A stretch of DNA of 10,062 nucleotides from Myxococcales bacterium. GTDB taxonomy: Bacteria > Myxococcota > Polyangia > HGW-17 > SLPX01. Location of the stretch: contig SLPX01000111.1 of assembly GCA_007131745.1 (NCBI GenBank), positions 1 to 10,062 on the forward strand, in the 5' to 3' direction. The notes under the pieces were generated by a model, which was given only the letters and a program-made list of their open reading frames with translations, was not told the DNA's origin and searched no databases. A program made the position numbers and the translations under genes. Shown here piece after piece: positions 1 to 8,581 of this stretch (its first letter is position 1; each line of letters starts with the position of its first letter).

Positions 1-54
1 CCGACGCGGCGATACTCCCCGACGCGGCGATACTCCCCGACGCGGCGATACTCC
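1..54 (+). repeat. Perfect 18-bp tandem repeat, three copies, in frame
   Basis: The unit CCGACGCGGCGATACTCC occurs three times back to back (1-18, 19-36, 37-54) without a mismatch and then degenerates at CGGACGCG. It lies in frame in the secreted-protein gene and encodes D-A-A-I-L-P hexapeptides. The array probably continues to the left of the window. Perfect identity at DNA level, including synonymous positions, points to recent slippage expansion. Confidence 0.95.
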
Positions 55-635
55 CGGACGCGTATGTAGAACCCGACGGATCAGTCCTGTACTACAATGA
101 CTTTTCAACCATAGAAGACGATTTTGAAGGATACGGGAACTGGGCCTACCAAGGGGGAAGCTTGTGCCAAAACAGCACAAATAACCCCAGGTGGCCCAAT
201 CTGAGGCTTCACGACGCTGTACTCCCGGAAAACGACATTGTCGTCGAGACGGTCATGACCGTGACCGGCTACGAGGCGGGCCACTCGGATTGGGCCTCTG
301 TAGGCGTGGGGGTGCGCAGTGTATCCACGGGGAACGGAAACTACCACAGCTACCTGTGCTGCCTGGACCTGGAAGACGGCAGGTTGGTGATCCTGTACAG
401 CCATGGTTTGTCCGTCACACCTTTGGCCGCCAGCGCACACGGGACTGTGTCCAACACCGGCACGTTCACCCTGCGCGCCTCCGCAATCGGCACGACAATC
501 GGCTGCGAGATCCTTTCAGGGTCCACGGTTGAACCCCTCAGTTTTGTACACAGCGATCTGACGACCGGAACAGCAGGCATGTTCACCTACCGCGCGTCCG
601 CGTGTTGGGATTACCTCCTCGTTTACGAACCCTGA
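1..635 (+). CDS. C-terminal part of a secreted protein with a jelly-roll (concanavalin/LamG-like) domain; 5' end outside window
   Basis: The reading frame is open from the left edge (first full codon at base 3) to a TGA at 633-635, giving 210 visible residues. The TTG at 162 is an internal codon, not a convincing start, because the open frame and sensible protein sequence extend upstream of it. The visible part begins with three D-A-A-I-L-P hexapeptides and an acidic linker. About 180 residues then alternate short beta-type segments, with a YYNDFS opening, a GYGNWAY motif, and a WDYLLVYEP ending typical of concanavalin-like jelly-roll domains (LamG/DUF1080 style). Such domains usually bind or cleave glycans, and Asp/Pro-rich linkers are typical of cell-surface or lipoprotein tails. 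Ligand and enzymatic activity cannot be told. Any signal peptide lies outside the window. Two adjacent Cys (LCCLDL) sit mid-domain. It converges on the hydrolase gene, 41 bp away. Confidence 0.75.
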   Translation, partial: DAAILPDAAILPDAAILPDAYVEPDGSVLYYNDFSTIEDDFEGYGNWAYQGGSLCQNSTNNPRWPNLRLHDAVLPENDIVVETVMTVTGYEAGHSDWASVGVGVRSVSTGNGNYHSYLCCLDLEDGRLVILYSHGLSVTPLAASAHGTVSNTGTFTLRASAIGTTIGCEILSGSTVEPLSFVHSDLTTGTAGMFTYRASACWDYLLVYEP

Positions 636-644
636 TGGGAAAGA

Positions 645-666
645 CCGACCCGGCTTGAACCGGTCG
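645..666. terminator. Possible hairpin between convergent genes
   Basis: A seven-base-pair stem with one bulged C can be drawn: CGA-CCGG, loop CTTGAA, CCGG-TCG, at about 646-666. It lies between two convergent stop codons (635 and 677), where a bidirectional terminator would be expected. There is no T-run on either side, so an intrinsic terminator is weakly supported. Confidence 0.3.
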
Positions 667-676
667 ACGGCTGTGA

Positions 677-1879
677 TCACAAGGGCCGCGGTGTTCTCTC
701 CATGGCCTGTCGGACCAGGTTCACCACGTGCTCACCCACCTCCGGGCTGGTCAGGATGTCGAAGTGTCCGGTAGAGGGAAACACCCGATAGCTTCCGCAG
801 GCGGCCGAGGGATCCGTCATTCGAAAGGGGTCAGTGCCAAGGGCGCTCCGTTTGCCCACCAGGCCGTCGCCGAAGTAGAGAGCGACAGGAGAGCTTTCGT
901 CAGAGGCCAGGGTTCCCACCAGCAGGTGGTAGTCTACACCGGAAATAGTTGGGATGTGGGTGCGTACGGCCCGCAGACGACCATCCTTTGAATGATCCCG
1001 CCAGTCTTCGTCGACCATGAAGCCGAAACGCAGATCCCGGATACCGTTACTCCGCTGCTCGATGATCCGCCCGCCCAGTGTCGTGTAAAGGTTGCCCACC
1101 CGTTGCAGCACGAAAGCACTCAGGTTGGCGAGTTGCTCAAGGTAGGACCCCTGGGCCGGCACCCCCAGGAGTACCACCGTGGACAGCCGCTTGACCCACT
1201 CGTGCCCATCCAGGCTGCCGTAGTAACCCGCGCTCCTGGCCACCAGGCCTCCCATTGAGTGCGCCACCAGGATCAACCGATCCAAATGAGGTACGGCGGC
1301 GGCCACCAACTCCTCAAGGAGCGCTGAGAGACGTCGACCGTTTTCCGAGATGTGCAGGCCCGTGTTGTAACGTACGTGGAGCACAGTGACCCCGAGTTCC
1401 CGCTCCAGGCGGAGCCCGTGGCCGGGCCGGCTCGGAGAAGTCGACTGCCAGCGGGTTTCATCAAACATCACCTCGTCGCACATGAGCCCATGGATTGTCA
1501 CAACCAACGTCCGGCCGGCGGACTGAAGTTTGGACGGCAAGGCCAGCTCCTCCACGCCGACGTCGCTACCACCTTGGCGGAAGGACATGGAGATGGCTTT
1601 GGGATCCCCGGCTTCGGCGAGGCGGTCGCCCAGGAATCCGCAGAGCACAGCGTTGAGGTAGTGGCGGTTCTCCGCGGTTACGCGGTAGGCCGAGCCGACT
1701 CCTCTTCCCATCGCCGAAGCCGCTTTGCCCACAGCGGAAACCGCCTTCGAAAGAGCGCCGGGCTCCGCTGACTCCGTCGTTTCGGCAAACTCCTCGGCGA
1801 CCGATTCTTCGTCAACCATCGCTTCTTCTTTGCTGCCGGAGCCTGTGCAGGCTCCTTCCGTACTTGCGTCAATCTCCAT
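677..1879 (-). CDS. Alpha/beta-hydrolase, lipase/esterase-like (400 aa)
   Basis: A serine hydrolase of the alpha/beta fold, probably acting on an ester or lipid substrate. The oxyanion-hole segment VVTIHGLM is at residues 126-133. The nucleophile elbow is L-V-A-H-S-M-G-G with Ser208; the first Gly of GxSxG is Ala, as in small Bacillus-type lipases. A likely acid residue is Asp338 in YFGDGLVGKR, and the likely catalytic His is His372 in STGHFDIL. The sequence between them resembles PGAP1/lecithin-acyltransferase-like esterases. The first 70 residues are an acidic and then Ala-rich extension with no signal peptide, so the protein looks cytoplasmic or peripheral. ATG at 1879 is preferred over the upstream in-frame start at 1918 because GGGAGAG stands about 8 nt upstream of it. 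It appears monocistronic. The physiological substrate is unknown. Confidence 0.85.
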   Translation of the reverse strand: MEIDASTEGACTGSGSKEEAMVDEESVAEEFAETTESAEPGALSKAVSAVGKAASAMGRGVGSAYRVTAENRHYLNAVLCGFLGDRLAEAGDPKAISMSFRQGGSDVGVEELALPSKLQSAGRTLVVTIHGLMCDEVMFDETRWQSTSPSRPGHGLRLERELGVTVLHVRYNTGLHISENGRRLSALLEELVAAAVPHLDRLILVAHSMGGLVARSAGYYGSLDGHEWVKRLSTVVLLGVPAQGSYLEQLANLSAFVLQRVGNLYTTLGGRIIEQRSNGIRDLRFGFMVDEDWRDHSKDGRLRAVRTHIPTISGVDYHLLVGTLASDESSPVALYFGDGLVGKRSALGTDPFRMTDPSAACGSYRVFPSTGHFDILTSPEVGEHVVNLVRQAMERTPRPL

Positions 1880-1975
1880 AACACTTCTCTCCCGGGCAAA
1901 CCGCCTGATTTGCAACATGCCCTTTTTTCGTCACAAGTCGAATAAGGCACGCACAGGTGGAGGCGGAATTGTTGT

Positions 1976-2004
1976 ATGCTACAGCTTCTACCCATCATGG
2001 ACAA
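1976..2004 (-). promoter_or_regulatory. Candidate sigma70-type promoter of the hydrolase gene
   Basis: On the minus strand TTGTCC (1999-2004) and TAGCAT (1976-1981) are separated by exactly 17 bp. Each matches the -35/-10 consensus at four of six positions. Placement about 100 bp upstream of the hydrolase start is reasonable. The call rests on spacing and partial matches only. Confidence 0.3.
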
Positions 2005-2091
2005 CACAATCCTCATAGCTCATAGCGCCCCTCATCCTGACTCGGTCTGACCAAACCGGTCGACGTTCCAGACTTTGTAAACGATGGCACG

Positions 2092-2150
2092 AGTTTTTTT
2101 GCCTTGAGTCAAAATTGCACGCTAGTTTTTTTGCCTTGAGTCAAAATTGC
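2092..2150 (+). repeat. 27-bp direct repeat, two perfect copies, upstream of the ATPase gene
   Basis: Two identical 27-bp copies (2092-2118 and 2124-2150) are separated by 5 bp, so the period is 32 bp. Each begins AG followed by seven T, then GCCTTGAGTCAAAATTGC, and contains the near-palindrome TTGAGTCAA (2104-2112 and 2136-2144). The pair is bracketed by the inverted hexamers CACGAG (2088-2093) and CTCGTG (2150-2155). Further TTGAGT words occur at 2174 and, as TTGAGTCA, at 2200-2207. A period close to three helical turns suggests protein binding sites, an operator or iterons; function is inferred. Confidence 0.85.
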
Positions 2151-2230
2151 TCGTGAGCTAGAAGGGTGTTAACTTGAGTTTGTGATGAAAATCCATGAAT
2201 TGAGTCAGCTCTAAGCATCGGAGGGATTGA

Positions 2231-3343
2231 ATGTTTACAAGATTGATAACTCGCCAGGTGAAAAAAGACCTCCAAAAAAAGATGGTTTTTGTTGGTGGTG
2301 CCCGGCAGGTTGGTAAAACCACCATGGCGAAGTCAATCCTTGAAAAGAACGGGGTCTATTTGAACTGGGATATCACAAAACATCGGGAAATGATTTTGAA
2401 AGGCGAAGTCCCGGAAGGCGGGATGCTGATTCTTGATGAGTTGCACAAATTCAAGGAATGGCGGCGGTACTTGAAAGGAATTTATGATTTACATGGAAAC
2501 ACAAAGAAAATTCTGGTAACCGGAAGCGCTCGTTTGGATTACTACAGGTATGGCGGCGATTCACTTCAGGGCAGATACCATTATTTGAGAATGTTTCCAC
2601 TTTCCGTTGCGGAACTCTCAATAAAAAACAACAAGCAACTTGAAAACCTGATGAGCCTGGGAGGTTTTCCCGAACCTTATTTTTCAGGGTCGGTTACCGA
2701 GGCAAAAAGGTGGTCGAGGCAATATCGCACAAGATTGATTCATGAAGACATAGTAGCGCTTGAAAGAACAACCGAGATCCAGAAGATTGAACTCATGATG
2801 CTGAGGTTGCCTGATCTCGTGGGTTCACCGCTTTCAATAAACTCTCTGCGGGAGGATCTGAACGTCAGCCATAAAGCAGTATCAAACTGGCTCGATATTC
2901 TTGAGCGGTTGTATTCCGTTTTCAGGATTCCACCTGTCACCGGCAATCTCCTCAGAGCCGTGAAGAAAGAACAGAAACATTACCATTATGACTGGACGCT
3001 TGTGAAAGATCCGGGATTGAGGTTTGAGAACATGGTTGCCGTTCATCTGAAAAAATGGGCGTGTTGGCAGCAAGATGTTTTCGGACGAGATGTAGAACTA
3101 CACTATTTCAGAGACGTTGATCGAAGAGAAGTTGATTTTGTCATGGTTGAAGACGGAAAGCCTCTTTTCTGCGTTGAAAGCAAACTCGAAAGCACAACCC
3201 TGTCGAACCATTTGCTCTATTTTTTGAAAAAGTTTCCAGCGTGTAAAGGATGGCAGATAACGCTTTCGGGATCAAAGAATGTGACAACAAGAGAGGGAGT
3301 CCGGATCGCTCCGGCGGTTGTGTTTTTAGGTGAACTGATTTAG
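2231..3343 (+). CDS. DUF4143-type AAA+ ATPase (370 aa)
   Basis: A full-length member of the common prokaryotic P-loop ATPase family with a C-terminal DUF4143 region. Walker A is GARQVGKT at residues 23-30. Walker B is LILDELHK at 66-73. The sensor-like motif TGSARLD is at 97-103, followed by the family-typical SLQGRYHYLRMFPLS stretch and a GGFPEPY motif near 144-150. The C-terminus has a restriction-endonuclease-like core: E-V-D-F-V near 300 and then C-V-E-S-K about 15 residues on. Family members are widespread, often horizontally transferred, and mostly of unknown role, though toxin and nuclease functions have been suggested. ATG at 2231 is chosen for a GGAGG about 7 nt upstream. The gene is A+T-richer than both flanks, has no partner gene, and is bounded by repeats on both sides, suggesting acquisition. 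Confidence 0.88.
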   Translation: MFTRLITRQVKKDLQKKMVFVGGARQVGKTTMAKSILEKNGVYLNWDITKHREMILKGEVPEGGMLILDELHKFKEWRRYLKGIYDLHGNTKKILVTGSARLDYYRYGGDSLQGRYHYLRMFPLSVAELSIKNNKQLENLMSLGGFPEPYFSGSVTEAKRWSRQYRTRLIHEDIVALERTTEIQKIELMMLRLPDLVGSPLSINSLREDLNVSHKAVSNWLDILERLYSVFRIPPVTGNLLRAVKKEQKHYHYDWTLVKDPGLRFENMVAVHLKKWACWQQDVFGRDVELHYFRDVDRREVDFVMVEDGKPLFCVESKLESTTLSNHLLYFLKKFPACKGWQITLSGSKNVTTREGVRIAPAVVFLGELI

Positions 3344-3357
3344 GGGCGGCCGCACGG

Positions 3358-3497
3358 GTGGAATTGTTCGGGTTTGGCGACGGAGGGTGAGGAGGTGGTG
3401 GCTCCGCTGGGAGGTGACCAAATGTGAAGAATTCCACGTCAGTGGAATTGTTCAGGTTTGGCGACGGAGGGTGAGGAGGTGGTGGCTCCGCTGGGAG
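3358..3497. repeat. 56-bp direct repeat that duplicates the 3' end of the tRNA gene
   Basis: Bases 3358-3413 and 3442-3497 match over 56 bp with one mismatch (G at 3370, A at 3454), with a period of 84 bp. The second copy runs into the intact tRNA and contains its CCA, discriminator, acceptor 3' strand and the start of the T-arm. The first copy is therefore a truncated tRNA 3' end (about 3396-3413) plus the shared downstream flank, and it diverges right after CTGGGAG. The 28-bp spacer supplies AATTCCAC (3430-3437), which is the inverse of GTGGAATT at 3442-3449 across a 4-nt loop. The arrangement resembles the leftover of site-specific integration at a tRNA 3' end, or a local tandem duplication. 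Confidence 0.9.
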
Positions 3498-3556
3498 TCG
3501 AACCCAGAACCTCTCGATTTTGAGTCGAGCGCCTCTGCCAATTGGGCCACGGAGCC
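3480..3556 (-). tRNA. tRNA with anticodon CAA (decodes UUG, Leu), short variable loop, CCA encoded
   Basis: The minus strand folds into a complete cloverleaf. The acceptor is GGCTCCG/CGGAGCC (7 bp). The D-arm is GCCCAATTGGCAGAGGC. The anticodon stem CTCGA/TCGAG encloses the loop CTCAAAA. The variable loop AGGTT is only 5 nt. The T-arm is CTGGG-TTCGACT-CCCAG. Discriminator A is followed by an encoded CCA (3480-3482). The tRNA is 74 nt, plus CCA. By loop position the anticodon is CAA, which reads the Leu codon UUG. Bacterial leucine tRNAs normally carry a long variable arm, so the charging identity is uncertain. All stems are perfectly paired, so it does not look like a decayed gene. Confidence 0.92.
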
Positions 3557-3720: not shown

Positions 3721-5214
3721 TCAGACTGCAGAGGAGCGGGTGGCGATTTCTTTTTTCGTGGCAACGGGTACTTCGTCGATGTGTGGGGAGTGAGCGCCGC
3801 AAGATTCCATGTTTTCCAACTCTTCGGCCGTGGCGGGGTAGAAGCCGAATTCCTGGAGGACGCGGAGCTTGGGGCGGATGTTTCCTTCCAGGTCTACGTG
3901 GAAGAAACCGGGGAAGATATCCGGGTTTGCCTGGATGAAGTCGAAAACATCCTTGTGCTTGGGGTCGATTTCCACGTGAGCGCCGGTGCTGATTTCATGG
4001 CCGGTCACCATGTATTCGGGAAAAACGTCGGGCGCGAACTCGAGTTGTTCGAGCTTGACGTGGTTTTTGAAAAGGGGAGTTTGAGGCAGGAGGCAGAGCA
4101 TGGAAGGGAGGATCCTGGCGCCCATCATGCGAAAGGAGATCATCTGGAACACGGATTTGTAGAACTCGTCCATGGATTCGAATGGGTAGCCCCATACGTA
4201 GAAGAGGTCGACGCGGCGGAAGATGTCGCACGCGATTCGCACGATTTCGATGGTTTCATCCGATGTGAAGCCTTTTTTCGTGAGTTCCAGTATGCGATCA
4301 TCACCGGATTCGATTCCGAACCGGATTTCCACGCAGCCGGTGCGTTCCATGGCTTCCATCATTTCCGTGGATGAGAGGTTGATTCTTCCGAAGGCTTTCC
4401 AGAGGAGGGAGAGACCTGTTTTTTCAAGGGCGTTGCAGAAGCTGACGACGCGCGATGGGGAGGAGACGAAAAACTCGTCTTGAAACAGGATCATTTCCGC
4501 TCCTCCTTTTTCATGGAGGGTTTTCATGTCCTGGATCACGGATTCCGCGCTTCGATAGTATGATTTGTGGTCCCATACGGGCGCGACCGAACAGAACGTG
4601 CATTCATACGGGCACCCGCGGGAGGTGATAACGTTGAAACCGGTGTATGAAGAGAGGTCCACGTGATGGTAAGCCGGGGGGGTGATGCGGTCGAGGTTTA
4701 CGATGCGGGGCGGACGGGGGTTGTGGCGGATGACTCCGTCTTGGATGTAGCTTATCCCCGGGACGTTTTCGAGCGAGTCTCCGTTGGTGAGCGCTCCTAG
4801 AAGAATGGGAGCGCTTTTTTCTGCTTCTCCCCTGACGATTATGTCCACCCAGGGACATAGCTCAAGAATTTTTGTTTCAACGGATTTTGGGCCGACCCCC
4901 GCGAGGATAAGGGTTTTTTCGGGGTGCAGTTCCTTGTAGTGCTTCATGGCGAGAAGGGTGAAGGGAAGGAGGTTTGCCATGCATGAAAAGCCTACCACTG
5001 GGGCCGCGCCTTCGAGGAAACGGGCTACCTCCTCTGCTGAAAAGGGTTCTTCGACCTTGTGTTGCTGATAGTCTCGAAAATCAACCTGAAAGCCCGCGTC
5101 TTCGAGCGCTGATGTGACATAGAGGGGCCCCAGGGCGAGGTGCTGTTCCTGCTCTATGTTGTCGTGGTATCGGACGTAGAGCAGATTCAGATTCAGGATT
5201 GTAATATGAGCCAC
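3721..5214 (-). CDS. B12-binding-domain radical SAM enzyme (497 aa), candidate maturase of the adjacent paralogs
   Basis: An N-terminal Rossmann-like region (residues about 2-145) has the pattern of B12-binding domains of this superfamily: DYQQH near 48, VVGFSCMA at 73-80, ILAGVGPKS at 103-111 and VRGEAE at 127-132. The radical SAM core follows with S-R-G-C-P-Y-E-C-T-F-C; Cys201, Cys205 and Cys208 should bind the [4Fe-4S] cluster. The acidic FQDEFF (244-249) and FGIESGDD (299-306) motifs are typical. The C-terminal 125 residues are not recognised. The annotated start is GTG at 5214 because AGAGGAG stands about 8 nt upstream; the in-frame TTG at 5235 has none. It follows the second paralog by 39 bp on the same strand. 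Cobalamin radical SAM enzymes often methylate unreactive carbons. The substrate here is inferred from adjacency only. Confidence 0.88.
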   Translation of the reverse strand: MAHITILNLNLLYVRYHDNIEQEQHLALGPLYVTSALEDAGFQVDFRDYQQHKVEEPFSAEEVARFLEGAAPVVGFSCMANLLPFTLLAMKHYKELHPEKTLILAGVGPKSVETKILELCPWVDIIVRGEAEKSAPILLGALTNGDSLENVPGISYIQDGVIRHNPRPPRIVNLDRITPPAYHHVDLSSYTGFNVITSRGCPYECTFCSVAPVWDHKSYYRSAESVIQDMKTLHEKGGAEMILFQDEFFVSSPSRVVSFCNALEKTGLSLLWKAFGRINLSSTEMMEAMERTGCVEIRFGIESGDDRILELTKKGFTSDETIEIVRIACDIFRRVDLFYVWGYPFESMDEFYKSVFQMISFRMMGARILPSMLCLLPQTPLFKNHVKLEQLEFAPDVFPEYMVTGHEISTGAHVEIDPKHKDVFDFIQANPDIFPGFFHVDLEGNIRPKLRVLQEFGFYPATAEELENMESCGAHSPHIDEVPVATKKEIATRSSAV

Positions 5215-5253
5215 CGCGGAACTCCTCTTGTTCAAGACAAGCTTAAATGTTTG

Positions 5254-6069
5254 TTAGTTCTCAGGTTTTGTTTTTGTAACCGGAGGGATGTCCGGTGCGA
5301 TGCCGCCGACTGCACCCATGCCTCTGGTGACCGCTCTTGATTCACAATCAGAGTCGCGTTGTTTTGTAGAACGAGGCGATGTGCGAGGGGGCGGTCTATC
5401 GGACCTTATTCCCCGGGTGCGGTCATGTTGGCCGGGTCGCTTTATGTTCAAGTTGGGCCGAGCGGAATCCTGTTTCCCGGGCTTTTCAGAATCTTCTTCC
5501 CCCTCTGATTCTGTCTCTTCTTTTTTCTCTTCCTGTTCGTTTTGCTCTTCGTCTTCCGGCACAATTTCATCATGGCCTGGATCTTGTTCTTCTACGTCAG
5601 GAGGAATATCGGGTTCTATCCCTCGGACTACAGCGGGAGATTCTGTGATAATGGGCTGTTCTTCATTGTACTCTTTAGCGGGAGATGTTTCTCCTTTTTC
5701 GGTTTTTGTGCAACGCGCAAGCGCTGCTCCTCCCAGGATCAGCACGGCGGTTCGCGCTGCCTGCTGCAAAAAAGAGCGGCGGTCCATAGCAGGTTCGGGA
5801 AGACCGCGGGCCATGTTGCGGATTCCGTCGGCCGTGATGGAGCGAAGCATGGCTGTTTCTGAACGGGTGAGTTGGATGCCGGCCGCGTGCGCGGCTTTTT
5901 CCCGTTCGCGGATGAGTTCTTCGCAAAATTCAGGGTCTACCGAAGCAAGCCTCAGAAGGCTTTGAAGACCGGTCGGGATCGGATGAAGACCGTCGTTTTT
6001 CGACTTTGTCTTCGGGTTTTTTGATTTTTGCGTTGGTTTGTCGCTTGTAAACATTCTTGAACGAACCAT
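5254..6069 (-). CDS. Putative radical SAM substrate, paralog A: NHLP-like leader, internal Tat-type segment, GIxPDxPP tail (271 aa)
   Basis: Not a recognised named protein. A basic N-terminus (1-30) is followed by a compact helical region (33-90) with SLLRLASVDPEF, EKAAHAAG and LTRSETAML motifs. It resembles the leader regions of NHLP-clan RiPP precursors, where a short 'DP-F-LL...G-LT-E-ML' pattern recurs; this likeness is from memory. Next come D-R-R-S-F-L (RR at 97-98), a hydrophobic run (105-119) and Cys120, like a Tat or lipoprotein signal but internal. The tail is acidic and Pro/Glu-rich, with GIEPDIPP (150-157), GIRSDRPP (220-227) and GIAPDIPP (256-263). ATG at 6069 has AGGAG 6 nt upstream. 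It lies 18 bp after paralog B and just before the radical SAM gene. Alternatives: an iron-sulfur-type Tat-anchored accessory protein, or an anti-sigma-like membrane protein. Confidence 0.7.
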   Translation of the reverse strand: MVRSRMFTSDKPTQKSKNPKTKSKNDGLHPIPTGLQSLLRLASVDPEFCEELIREREKAAHAAGIQLTRSETAMLRSITADGIRNMARGLPEPAMDRRSFLQQAARTAVLILGGAALARCTKTEKGETSPAKEYNEEQPIITESPAVVRGIEPDIPPDVEEQDPGHDEIVPEDEEQNEQEEKKEETESEGEEDSEKPGKQDSARPNLNIKRPGQHDRTRGIRSDRPPPRTSPRSTKQRDSDCESRAVTRGMGAVGGIAPDIPPVTKTKPEN

Positions 6070-6625
6070 GGTGCGCTCCTGTTTTCTTTAAATTCCGGAC
6101 AAGCTGCCCAGAATCTGATCTTTTTTGCCTGGTCTTTCAACCTGTGGAAAATGGTCCTTGGTGTGTTTCTCTTCGCTGTCTTGAGCCTTGTCATCATTTT
6201 CGGGATCGTGTTTGTCAGGATGCTCTTGTTCAGGTTCTTGCTGCTCCGGTTCGGGCTCTTCTTTTTCGGTAGGTTCTTTCTCGGGTGGTATGGTGGGCGC
6301 GATTCCTTCATCGATATTGCGTTGTTCTTTTCTGGCCGGAGCAGGTTCACCGTGCTTTACACAGTTCGCCAGAATTGAGCCGCCGAGAATCAGAACAGCG
6401 GTTTTCGCCGCTTGTTTCAAAAAGGATCTGCGGTTCACAGCGGGTTGGGGGAGCTGATTTGCCATCAAGCGGATCTGGTCGGCCGTTATGGATCGGAGCA
6501 TGGCCGTTTCTGAAGGAGTTAGTTCTATTCCTGCCGCGTGCGCGGCTTTTTCACGTTGCCGGATGAGTTCTTCACAGAATTTGGGATCTACCGAAGCCAA
6601 CCTCAGCAAACTTTGTAAACCCACC
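5700..6625 (-). repeat. Diverged tandem duplication of about 270 bp (leader plus Tat-type region)
   Basis: The segments at about 5706-5971 and about 6360-6625 encode the matching 88-residue blocks of the two paralogs and are still visibly similar as DNA, for example GCCGCGTGCGCGGCTTTTTC and CGGATGAGTTCTTC in both. Outside this block the two genes are not alignable by eye except for the ribosome-binding leader and the GIxP motif. Conservation is thus confined to the leader-like and membrane-targeting part. Confidence 0.85.
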
Positions 6626-6744
6626 GGAACAGGGGGGAGTTTGGTTATTTTCTCCGGCGGTCTGCCTCCTACAATGGTTCTCCTGGGAGAGTTGTTTCCC
6701 ATTTCTCCGGGTTGGTTTTCTTTGAAAGTCTTCTGTCCTGACAT
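6088..6744 (-). CDS. Putative radical SAM substrate, paralog B: NHLP-like leader, internal Tat-type segment, GIxPxIPP tail (218 aa)
   Basis: Paralog of the following gene. Residues 41-128 align with residues 33-120 of paralog A at 71 of 88 identities by my count. The N-terminal 40 residues and the tail differ. The leader-like region (41-98) is followed by N-R-R-S-F-L (RR at 105-106), a hydrophobic run (113-127) and Cys128. The tail is rich in Glu, Pro, Lys and Asp, with one GIAPTIPP at 147-154, and ends LGSLSGI. ATG at 6744 has GGGAG 6 nt upstream; the leader GGAGCGCGCCATG almost matches that of paralog A, so the duplication seems to have included the ribosome binding site. The Cys is preceded by Asn, which is not a standard lipobox. 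It opens the three-gene paralog B - paralog A - radical SAM group. Function is unknown; a modified precursor is the favoured reading. Confidence 0.7.
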   Translation of the reverse strand: MSGQKTFKENQPGEMGNNSPRRTIVGGRPPEKITKLPPVPVGLQSLLRLASVDPKFCEELIRQREKAAHAAGIELTPSETAMLRSITADQIRLMANQLPQPAVNRRSFLKQAAKTAVLILGGSILANCVKHGEPAPARKEQRNIDEGIAPTIPPEKEPTEKEEPEPEQQEPEQEHPDKHDPENDDKAQDSEEKHTKDHFPQVERPGKKDQILGSLSGI

Positions 6745-6820: not shown

Positions 6821-8503
6821 TTAGAATAAAATGGGGTTTTTTACTAACAAAAAAAACAGGCTTGAAAGTACGTGGTCTCTGTTCATTTCTTTTTCCACGC
6901 CGATGATGGTGAGCAAACTCGTAGCACGGGAGACCGCGATGTACATTCTTGTGCTGTAGGTGGTGTCGTACATATCGGAAACGAGCCTGAGATCCGTTAT
7001 GATAACAGCCGGCCGCTCCAACCCTTTAAATCGCAGGAAGGTGTCGCATACAATATGGGAATCTGATTCGACGTGATCCGCGGGCATGACTTTTTTTCCA
7101 CCCAGCTTGCTGTTGTGACAGATGTTTTCATCCGAGTTTTTTCCCCGTATCGAGATGACCGCGATTTCGCCGGGTTGCAATCCTTGTCCAAGCAACCTGT
7201 TTATTTCCTTGCCTGTTTGAATTGCGATTCTTTGTTTCGAAGAGGTCTTTATTGAAATGATGTTCGAATCGATAACCGGTTTGACGAGATCCGGATTCAA
7301 TGAACATCGTCCTGCATAACAGTCCGCCAGGTGCTGGATTTCGGGAGGGCAGCGGTATGGTTTGCGTAAACCGATACGGAAAGATGCTTGTTGGATGTCC
7401 TCGGGTATTTGCCGTGCTTTCCAGAATCCCTGATCATTGTCCGCGAAAACCCACAATCGATCCCTTTTTTTCGAGCATTCCCTTACAAGACACCAGTCGT
7501 CTTCGGTTAAATCCCGACCCTCGTCTATGATGACCGTATCCCAGGAGTCTTTTTCGTCCGGCAGGCCGTCGATAGCGGCCCTGAGGGATACGCTGTTCCA
7601 GTATTCGGAAGGATCATCTCCTCTGTATTCGGTGGGATTTTCGCCCAACAAACCGGCAGCGAAGTGTCGGATTGCTCCAGTGGTGACATTTGGATGCACC
7701 ACGGTTTCCTTAAGTAGGCGTCCCAGCGCATTGGTGAAGCATAGCAGAAGAACTTTGTCGCCTTTTTCCGCCCTCCGCTTGGCTGATTCGCAAGCGAGAA
7801 GGGTTTTTCCGGTTCCGGCTCCTCCCATGATCAGGACGCGGTCGTTTTCTTCGATCTCGTACAGTTTTTCAATCTGTTCTTCGTCGAGTTGTATCCTGTG
7901 TTGATTGTCCAGCTTGATCCTGTCACCCAAGCTCAAAGAGGGAATCCATGTTTCGCCCCAGAAATTGTGAAGAGTTCGTAACCATGGGCCTTTCACCGGC
8001 CATGGTTCAGGCACTGAGCGTTCCATGACTACTTTCAGGATTTCTTCCAGATAAGGGAGATCACGGCCGCCGATGATAAGGCCGTTAAGGTTGCATTGCG
8101 CCGGCTGCTTTGTAAACAATGTATCGGGGAAACACACTGCCACTCCGATTGTGGGACATTGGATGTTTTCTGCCTTGAAGCGTTCAATCAAACGCTTGCG
8201 GAAAGAAAACGCCTGATCCATGGGAGGTGTTTTCATGGGGTTATTGTTTTGAAACCAGGTTCCGTTTTTTTGGGAGATTTGTCCTCCCTTTACTTCAATC
8301 ACAAGGATGGATGGCCGGGATGGATCCACGACAACGAAATCCCCTTCACTGAACAATCCTCTTGTCCGCAGTTTCAGCGAGTGGTACGCACACCAACCTT
8401 TTGGAAGTGAAGTCTCTAGTGCACCATGGACTTTTATTTCCGCTTCAGATCTTGTTGGCCTGGGTGTTTCACGGGGCCAAAGGCCGGAAAAACGGGAAGA
8501 CAT
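6821..8503 (-). CDS. NERD nuclease domain fused to a UvrD/SF1-type helicase (560 aa)
   Basis: The N-terminal nuclease-related (NERD) domain spans residues about 18-125, with G-D-F-V-V-V-D (54-60) and the E-V-K-G-G site (Glu70, Lys72). The SF1 helicase follows: Walker A GGAGTGKT (227-234), Walker B IIDEGRD (325-331), motif III ADNDQGF (354-360), RKPYRCP near 380-386, motif V RFKGLERPAVI (491-501) and motif VI YIAVSRATS (521-529). NERD-helicase fusions act on DNA and occur in defence, mobile and housekeeping contexts; the target is unknown. ATG at 8503 is chosen because AGGAG lies 9 nt upstream; the in-frame TTG at 8539 has no such site. Motif II reads DEGRD where the related UvrD-type usually has DEAQD. 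The gene sits between the lipoprotein and the paralog pair on the same strand. Confidence 0.88.
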   Translation of the reverse strand: MSSRFSGLWPRETPRPTRSEAEIKVHGALETSLPKGWCAYHSLKLRTRGLFSEGDFVVVDPSRPSILVIEVKGGQISQKNGTWFQNNNPMKTPPMDQAFSFRKRLIERFKAENIQCPTIGVAVCFPDTLFTKQPAQCNLNGLIIGGRDLPYLEEILKVVMERSVPEPWPVKGPWLRTLHNFWGETWIPSLSLGDRIKLDNQHRIQLDEEQIEKLYEIEENDRVLIMGGAGTGKTLLACESAKRRAEKGDKVLLLCFTNALGRLLKETVVHPNVTTGAIRHFAAGLLGENPTEYRGDDPSEYWNSVSLRAAIDGLPDEKDSWDTVIIDEGRDLTEDDWCLVRECSKKRDRLWVFADNDQGFWKARQIPEDIQQASFRIGLRKPYRCPPEIQHLADCYAGRCSLNPDLVKPVIDSNIISIKTSSKQRIAIQTGKEINRLLGQGLQPGEIAVISIRGKNSDENICHNSKLGGKKVMPADHVESDSHIVCDTFLRFKGLERPAVIITDLRLVSDMYDTTYSTRMYIAVSRATSLLTIIGVEKEMNRDHVLSSLFFLLVKNPILF

Positions 8504-8581
8504 GGGAGTGTTCTCCTTTGAATTCCGAGAGACCTGCAAGAGGGTATCTTCCGCCCGCTTTCGATGCGCGAACGGCCGGGT

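What the first reader, a model, noticed from the sequence alone, without database searches (positions are those of the whole stretch)
3721..6744. Candidate RiPP-like cassette: two tandem NHLP-like leader proteins followed by a B12-type radical SAM enzyme
Seen: two paralogs with a strongly conserved helical leader-like block and divergent low-complexity tails, 18 bp apart, then a radical SAM gene with a B12-binding-like N-terminus 39 bp on. Known: B12 radical SAM enzymes modify RiPP precursors in several systems, for instance proteusins, which carry NHLP-type leaders. Inference: the radical SAM protein modifies the tails of the paralogs. Unlike known precursors, these carry a membrane or Tat segment between leader and tail, so the modified product would stay anchored or be exported folded.
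Basis: partly seen in the sequence, partly recalled or inferred. Interest (0 to 1): 0.75.

Follow-up and report, generated by a model that had tools for sequence, protein, structure and literature searches.

The report
Leader-guided radical-SAM-modified anchored repeat proteins
Two neighbouring proteins carry a peptide-antibiotic-type leader, a membrane or lipid-anchor segment and copies of a short Gly-Ile-x-Pro-Asp motif, and in the uncultured bacteria examined such genes travel with one vitamin-B12 radical enzyme, which suggests a little-known way of chemically marking exported proteins.

Summary
On the minus strand lie lead1 (6744-6088), lead2 (6069-5254) and a B12-binding radical SAM gene (5214-3721). 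The leader block resembles Os1348/Franean1_4349 (NHLP-clan) leaders in sequence (below curated cut-offs) and, modestly, in predicted fold; the enzyme most resembles ApyD in sequence and MgmA in fold. In three genome samples the enzyme was scored in 5, 7 and 10 genomes, with leaders scored in 5, 6 and 10 of them (the remaining one has a leader fragment at a contig end); 21 of 22 public enzyme loci have a leader gene adjacent. Leader and enzyme diverge in parallel, also for two paralogous pairs in one genome. Behind the leader come a hydrophobic segment, a near-invariant Cys and a tail with G-(I/V/A)-x-P-D motifs, about 17-fold over residue shuffles and 4-6-fold over dipeptide-preserving ones. 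Leaders also sit on other domains and at orphan loci. Best reading: a leader-guided B12 radical SAM enzyme modifies G-I-x-P-D sites before export and anchoring. Modification and lipidation are not shown. Signal-bearing, lipidated RiPPs are known, so this is a new variant of a known kind.

The parts
6088..6744 (-). lead1: leader-bearing precursor-like protein, 218 aa
   Evidence: ORF; NF038399 E 3e-9, 36.8 bits against cut-off 40; 93 proteins incl. itself and lead2 at E <= 1e-3
6655..6678 (-). TIVGGRPP block of lead1 (absent from lead2)
   Evidence: TIVGG in 90 of 93 near and 29 of 30 distant relatives
6454..6624 (-). leader helices of lead1 (residues 41-97)
   Evidence: five helices, block pLDDT 92-97; Os1348 6lk7_C best fold match
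6361..6432 (-). RRSFL + hydrophobic segment + Cys of lead1 (residues 105-128)
   Evidence: helix 105-120 in model; TIGR01409 Tat signal E 0.059, below cut-off; residue before Cys is Asn, atypical for a lipobox
6283..6306 (-). GIAPTIPP, degenerate copy of the core motif in lead1
5254..6069 (-). lead2: leader-bearing precursor-like protein, 271 aa
   Evidence: ORF; NF038399 E 1e-8, 35.1 bits against cut-off 40; 68% identical to lead1 over 56% of it
5794..5967 (-). leader block of lead2 (residues 35-92)
   Evidence: NF038399 match region
5710..5781 (-). RRSFL + hydrophobic segment + Cys of lead2 (residues 97-120)
   Evidence: residue before Cys is Arg, atypical for a lipobox
5599..5622 (-). core motif copy GIEPDIPP in lead2
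5389..5412 (-). core motif copy GIRSDRPP in lead2
5281..5304 (-). core motif copy GIAPDIPP in lead2
3721..5214 (-). B12-binding radical SAM enzyme, 497 aa, GTG start
   Evidence: PF02310, PF04055; fold nearest MgmA, then OxsB, CysS, AprD4, TsrM; SD-like AGGAG before the GTG
4591..4614 (-). CPYECTFC, [4Fe-4S]-binding CxxxCxxC motif of the enzyme
   Evidence: CxxxCxxC present in 16 of 16 enzymes compared
3784..3801 (-). C-terminal CGAHSP of the enzyme
   Evidence: invariant in the 44 aligned sequences of A4; CGA in 16 of 16 and CGAHSP in 13 of 16 enzymes of the wider set

Best explanation
This is a minimal RiPP-like protein-modification cassette. The folded Os1348/NHLP-clan leader, with the TIVGG block where present, docks lead1 and lead2 on the adjacent B12-dependent radical SAM enzyme in the cytoplasm. 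The enzyme then modifies the low-complexity tail at the recurring G-(I/V/A)-x-P-D sites. C-methylation is the most likely chemistry, with Pro or the residues beside it the first candidates. The protein is then exported through its internal hydrophobic segment, by Tat where RRxFL is present, and stays anchored. If signal peptidase II cuts at the conserved Cys, export, leader removal and lipid anchoring would be one step. Shown: gene order, co-occurrence, parallel divergence, leader likeness, enzyme class, motif recurrence, near-invariant Cys. Inferred: docking, site, chemistry, export route, lipidation.
For: Co-occurrence: leaders scored in 5 of 5, 6 of 7 and 10 of 10 enzyme genomes, in samples of 195, 377 and 192 genomes. 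Samples 1+2 (572 genomes) give Fisher p 9e-20, sample 3 (partly overlapping sample 2) 4e-15. Adjacency: 21 of 22 public enzyme loci read have a leader gene beside the enzyme. Parallel divergence: Mantel r 0.94, 0 of 5000 permutations as high, 15 pairs incl. the window; inside G006 the two systems pair off as cognates. Leader: NF038399 matched at 1e-3 by 20 of 20 members of A5, Os1348 best fold match, PF14407 listed for 8 of 37 rows. Motif: 278 and 110 copies against shuffle means 16.6/49.6 and 6.6/27.6; in the distant group GI is followed at +3 by P in 72 of 80 and at +4 by D or E in 76 of 80. Cys after the hydrophobic stretch in 91 of 93 and 30 of 30. Several leader genes round one enzyme, up to six. 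[quoted passage not shown]
Confidence: 0.6

Rival explanations
1. The enzyme does modify the leader-bearing proteins, but not at G-I-x-P-D; the motif is a binding or sorting element of a surface-displayed tail, and the modified residue lies elsewhere, for instance in the segment next to the Cys or in the fused domain.
For: Leader proteins with TonB_C or hydrolase-like domains exist, and two enzyme loci have leader-hydrolase fusions without the motif tail.
Against: The motif is the clearest element shared by otherwise unlike proline-rich, acidic and Asp/Thr-rich tails.
Confidence: 0.2
2. The enzyme acts on a small molecule, lipid or cofactor, and the leader-bearing proteins are carriers, membrane anchors or regulators of it rather than substrates.
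For: NCBIfam matches of the enzyme include BchE, HpnJ and other small-molecule enzymes, and fold matches include OxsB, CysS, AprD4; the hydrophobic segment could bring the enzyme to the membrane.
Against: Leader-type block, several paralogs per enzyme and orphan leaders in enzyme-bearing genomes are typical of precursors; best sequence match is ApyD and best fold match MgmA, which act on peptide or protein.
Confidence: 0.15
3. The leader-bearing proteins are ordinary membrane-anchored signalling or scaffold proteins (anti-sigma-like), and their link with the enzyme is only shared ancestry of an operon.
For: A cytoplasmic helical domain, one membrane segment and a low-complexity outer tail are common in such proteins (general knowledge).
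Against: Fisher p 9e-20 and 4e-15, cognate pairing of paralogous systems in one genome, no anti-sigma or other signalling match in the Pfam and NCBIfam scans.
Confidence: 0.05

Closest known systems
Os1348 / Franean1_4349 (Frankia_peptide) NHLP-clan leader proteins (NF038399, PF14407)
   Same: Leader block matches over most of the profile and the predicted fold is nearest Os1348; PF14407 is listed among ATP-grasp-linked precursor families in PMC8939145 (passages).
   Different: Window scores are below curated cut-offs; here the block is followed by a hydrophobic segment, Cys and a long tail, and the partner is a B12 radical SAM enzyme.
DAG-RiPPs (RiPP-lipoprotein hybrids, PMC12636315: abstract, passages and section 12 seen)
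   Same: Modified peptide or protein with a lipoprotein-type segment and Cys; proteins over 30 kDa can be modified; short pathway.
   Different: There an MNIO enzyme recognises a conserved C-terminal motif with an N-terminal signal, and the authors expect leader independence; here a leader precedes the export segment, the enzyme is B12 radical SAM, the motif has no Cys, and lipidation is only inferred.
Proteusins (e.g. polytheonamide; PoyB/PoyC seen in PMC11285071, passages)
   Same: NHLP-type leader (recalled for PoyA) and B12 radical SAM C-methyltransferases.
   Different: No further radical SAM (epimerase) gene among the window ORFs scanned; anchor segment and repeat tail; leader nearest Os1348.
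ApyD of aminopyruvatide biosynthesis (PMC10635010, passages)
   Same: Best NCBIfam match of the enzyme (E 1.9e-43); acts in a G-Y-L-Y-D pentapeptide that resembles G-I-x-P-D in layout.
   Different: Far below the curated cut-off (148.8 against 750 bits); ApyD carries an RRE and works with a P450 and an MNIO; no such partners among the window ORFs scanned.
MgmA, methyl-coenzyme M reductase glutamine C-methyltransferase
   Same: Best fold match (9ccb, Foldseek E 3.9e-22); B12 radical SAM enzyme that methylates a protein (PMC11796369, start of abstract in the listing).
   Different: 18% identity; single folded target, no leader (recalled).

Membership tests
Os1348/Franean1_4349 NHLP-clan leader family | Profile score at or above the curated cut-off | tested here: not met
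   NF038399 36.8 and 35.1 bits against 40; PF14407 20.3 and 18.2 against 48. Among relatives PF14407 is listed for 8 of 37.
Os1348/Franean1_4349 NHLP-clan leader family | Os1348-like helical fold | tested here: inconclusive
RiPP | Conserved leader followed by a variable core-like part | tested here: met
   73 of 91 identical up to the Cys, 31 of 90 after it; family alignment.
RiPP | Modifying enzyme encoded with the precursor | tested here: met
   21 of 22 public enzyme loci with an adjacent leader gene, plus the window. That the enzyme modifies it is inferred.
RiPP | Core is post-translationally modified and leader removed | not testable with these tools
   Needs mass spectrometry.
B12-dependent radical SAM (class B) methyltransferase | N-terminal B12-binding domain, radical SAM domain, CxxxCxxC | tested here: met
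   PF02310 44.9 (cut-off 32.1), PF04055 59.3 (cut-off 29.5); CPYECTFC.
B12-dependent radical SAM (class B) methyltransferase | Transfers a methyl group | not testable with these tools
   Other B12 radical SAM enzymes do other chemistry (C-S and C-P bonds, ring contraction, cyclization are named in a passage of PMC10635010).
ApyD equivalog (NF050148) | Score above curated cut-off 750 | tested here: not met
   148.8 bits.
DAG-RiPP | MNIO modifying enzyme | tested here: not met
   No MNIO/DUF692 match among the eight window ORFs scanned.
DAG-RiPP | Canonical lipobox with Cys | tested here: inconclusive
   Cys in 91 of 93 and 30 of 30 relatives, -1 residue G/A/S in 70 of 91 and 22 of 30; Asn and Arg in the window. 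No signal-peptide predictor was available.
Tat substrate | Twin-arginine signal | tested here: inconclusive
   TIGR01409 13.8 bits against 16.7 for lead1; RRxF[LIFM] in 83 of 93 near and 6 of 30 distant relatives.
Proteusin | Radical SAM epimerase and further tailoring genes beside an NHLP precursor (definition recalled) | tested here: not met
   Only one radical SAM gene among the eight window ORFs scanned; the window is 10 kb, so genes farther off are not excluded.

The most novel reading that the evidence does not exclude
A general, leader-addressed marking system for anchored or lipidated proteins. One B12 radical SAM enzyme reads an Os1348-type leader that has been placed in front of many tails and even whole folded domains, including orphan genes elsewhere in the genome. 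It installs a carbon-level modification on each G-I-x-P-D site, and signal peptidase then removes leader and signal together, leaving a multi-copy modified, membrane-anchored protein. It would be a leader-dependent RiPP-lipoprotein.
Probability: 0.4. Interest if true: 0.85.

Novelty: new variant of a known kind. Interest (0 to 1): 0.7.

Why it matters
It would show a RiPP leader used as a portable address on exported, anchored proteins, against the published expectation that lipidated RiPPs are mostly leader-independent. It offers a short, well-defined target motif for an unassigned branch of B12 radical SAM enzymes, so a two-gene co-expression followed by mass spectrometry gives a direct test. 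It also gives a biochemical lead for uncultured Deltaproteobacteria/Myxococcota.

Tried and rejected
Rejected: (a) chance neighbours, by co-occurrence and adjacency. (b) Species-tree explanation of the parallel divergence for G006: its second enzyme is 64% identical to that of G014 and 55% to its own first enzyme, its second leader 58% and 27%; the rest of the Mantel signal may reflect shared descent. (c) Cobalamin riboswitch before the cassette: at gathering threshold no Rfam match other than two tRNAs in 11 sources. (d) Plasmid carriage: no enzyme match in 72,556 plasmids at 1e-40. (e) Viral contigs: 27 pattern matches, none confirmed. (f) Other genes conserved in the cassette: none seen by eye in the ORF lists of 10 loci and parts of 7, except that the related G443 and G564 share neighbours; tblastn of five other window genes' and leaders' proteins found only leaders and enzyme in L001-L010. 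(g) Solved relative of the hydrolase-like fusion: only a designed protein at E 5e-4, taken as chance. (h) Whether the 56-60% identical enzymes of Planctomycetota and other phyla have leaders could not be tested: no contigs reachable. (i) PMC2887384 (founding NHLP paper) holds no mention of radical SAM or signal peptides by the terms searched.

Counting rules: of the 37 rows, the 30 with ids P0214-P0243 were used; P0244 and P0245 and the five already were left out. Tails were cut at the first Cys behind a hydrophobic stretch, which lost P0028 and P0033. L041 (leader cut by the contig end) was left out of the Mantel test. By the pattern (which also lets RH pass) 87 of 93 have an RRxFL-type site. 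Two weak leader fragments in L030 (E 5e-4, 1e-4) and a weak enzyme-profile match in L073 (E 1.5e-13, 48 bits) were not counted. Samples 2 and 3 overlap (enzyme genomes G001, G443, G564 are in both). Profile A5, used for sample 3, holds sequences from G443 and G564; profile A1, used for samples 1 and 2, holds database proteins, of which P0016 and P0025 have the contig lengths of L003 and L001. The thresholds were E 1e-6 for leaders and 1e-80 for the enzyme (1e-60). Completeness of the genomes is not told. Absence from fold search lists is not evidence.
Full report
WHAT IS THERE. The window (10,062 bp) holds on its minus strand lead1 (6744-6088), lead2 (6069-5254) and a radical SAM gene ending at 3721. 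The GTG at 5214 is the better start than TTG 5235: it has AGGAG upstream and lines up with the starts of relatives. Gaps are 18 and 39 bp. From the leader block to the Cys the paralogs share 73 of 91 aligned residues, after it 31 of 90.

THE ENZYME. It has PF02310 and PF04055 above cut-off and CPYECTFC. The best NCBIfam model is ApyD (148.8 bits, cut-off 750), then BchE, rSAM_ocin_1 (RiPP C-methyltransferase), HpnJ and others, none of the 25 shown near its cut-off, so it is an unassigned branch. Its model (mean pLDDT 86) is nearest MgmA, then OxsB, CysS, AprD4 and TsrM. The C-terminal tail is predicted with low confidence (from residue 469), yet C-G-A-H-S-P is invariant in the 44 aligned sequences, and CGA is kept in 16 of 16 enzymes down to about 50% identity. 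That points to a functional Cys/His (inference).

THE FAMILY. A search with lead1 gave 93 proteins; one with the enzyme gave 1,399 at E <= 1e-30 among 7,997 candidates scored, 120 listed. Of the 93 leader proteins, 20, including the window's two, share a longest-contig length with one of 96 contig lengths of the closest enzymes, a rough hint of linkage. A scan of 84,980 species genomes with A2, which needs an exact match to one of two peptide patterns, returned 10 loci, all from records titled MAG, of Deltaproteobacteria, Myxococcota or an uncultured proteobacterium; 7 of 10 have the enzyme directly downstream. Of the other three, two (L002, L006) lie in assemblies that also gave an enzyme locus (L001, L003), and one (L004) in a genome where no enzyme was found.

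CO-OCCURRENCE. Sample 1, 195 genomes (phylum of G004): leader 7, enzyme 5, both 5. Sample 2, 377 genomes (phylum of G001): enzyme 7, leader 7, both 6; the seventh, G428, has a leader fragment cut by the contig end beside the enzyme. Sample 3, 192 genomes (class of G006, partly overlapping sample 2): enzyme 10, leader 12, both 10. Fisher p 9e-20 for samples 1+2 as scored, 4e-15 for sample 3. Leader without enzyme: G013 (leader at contig end), G162 and G623 (weak matches), G408 and G003. Of 22 public enzyme loci read with flanks, 21 have at least one leader gene beside the enzyme; L104 (G600) has none in the 17 kb read (about 8 kb each side), while that genome has two leaders elsewhere. The 21 carry 1 to 6 leader genes; further leaders lie at orphan loci of the same genomes. 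G001 has six leader matches on six contigs and one enzyme match, so one enzyme would have to serve several precursors in trans.

PARALLEL DIVERGENCE. Identity matrices of leader and enzyme for 15 cognate pairs, the window's among them, correlate at r 0.94 (0 of 5000 permutations). Most of this could be common descent, but G006 has two systems: its second enzyme and second leader are both closer to those of G014 (64% and 58%) than to its own first ones (55% and 27%).

SEGMENT AND TAIL. A hydrophobic stretch followed by Cys occurs in 91 of 93 near and 30 of 30 distant relatives, the Cys at median residue 128 and 123. RRxF[LIFM] occurs in 83 of 93 near but only 6 of 30 distant ones, so Tat is plausible mainly for the near group. 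The residue before the Cys is G, A or S in 70 of 91 and 22 of 30; the window has Asn and Arg. The tails differ in make-up (proline-rich, acidic, Asp/Thr-rich) but share G-(I/V/A)-x-P-D: 278 copies in 83 of 91 near tails (residue shuffles 16.6 sd 3.9; dipeptide-preserving 49.6 sd 6.7) and 110 copies in 30 of 30 distant tails (6.6 sd 2.8; 27.6 sd 4.6). Counting only from 'GI', with no condition on what follows, the +3 residue is P in 101 of 124 (near) and 72 of 80 (distant), and +4 is D in 88 of 124 and 65 of 80. After GA and GV it is weaker: P in 188 of 240 and 34 of 56 (near), 9 of 20 and 16 of 36 (distant). In the near group the unit often repeats as RPxxxxMxTxGGAxPDxPP.

OTHER CARGOES. The leader also precedes TonB_C domains (two proteins in L030, Pfam E 2e-14 and 1e-5) and similar-looking C-terminal regions at orphan loci (L058, L061; not scanned). 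In L031 and L034 it precedes a hydrolase-like domain (my reading of the sequence; no Pfam match) directly before the enzyme. Leaders thus look like a portable address.

MECHANISM. NHLP leaders can bind their enzymes by protein/protein contacts, and different enzymes use different faces (PMC12455567, abstract and passages). ApyD beta-methylates Tyr within G-Y-L-Y-D (PMC10635010, passages), and bottromycin's B12 radical SAM enzymes methylate Phe, Val and Pro (PMC11285071, passages). From these I infer C-methylation at or near the Pro of G-I-x-P-D, with low confidence on the residue. Cytoplasmic modification before export fits both Tat and lipoprotein routes; for MNIO-modified DAG-RiPPs lipidation has been shown (PMC12636315, abstract, passages and section 12). 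That paper expects lipidated RiPPs to be mostly leader-independent; here a leader sits before the segment. Whether the window's proteins are lipidated is open.

PRINT. Nine full-text searches listed no paper that I recognised as describing this cassette or motif; the library holds open-licence PMC papers only, the lists were capped, and I read listings, abstracts and passages, not whole texts.

VERDICT. Real, well beyond chance, and best read as a leader-guided B12 radical SAM protein-modification cassette. Not filed as a member of the Os1348, ApyD, DAG-RiPP or proteusin families, since a defining feature was tested and not met in each. New variant of a known kind (RiPP-like).

Noticed in passing
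window 3358-3497: A 56-nt direct repeat (98% identical, copies 3358-3413 and 3442-3497); the second copy overlaps one end of the tRNA-Leu(CAA) gene (3480-3556, minus). It looks like an attachment-site-type or local duplication beside a tRNA gene.
   Followed up: partly
window 1-3000: GC falls from about 0.61 (1-2000) to 0.45 (2001-3000), where an AAA/DUF4143 ATPase gene starts at 2231.
   Followed up: no
window 6821-8539: Minus-strand protein with NERD nuclease-related and UvrD-type helicase matches just upstream of lead1; no match in the ten loci first compared.
   Followed up: partly
L031 8928-9962; L034 6728-7762: Leader block fused to a hydrolase-like domain of about 200 aa with no Pfam match, directly before a ~50% identical radical SAM enzyme.
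   Followed up: partly
L030 8914-12703; L058 1513-2502; L061 1387-2613: Leader blocks on long proteins with C-terminal domains; those of L030 match TonB_C, L058 and L061 (orphan loci of G001) were not scanned.
   Followed up: partly
L043, L044, L110: Three to six leader genes around one enzyme, with tails of long Asp/Thr dipeptide runs and, in several, a GVGPD- or GTGPD-like motif near the Cys; TIVGG and GSWKRR type leaders side by side suggest paired precursors.
   Followed up: partly
window 3784-3801: C-terminal CGAHSP of the enzyme: invariant in 44 aligned sequences although the tail is predicted with low confidence; His or Pro is changed in 3 of 16 enzymes of the wider set.
   Followed up: partly
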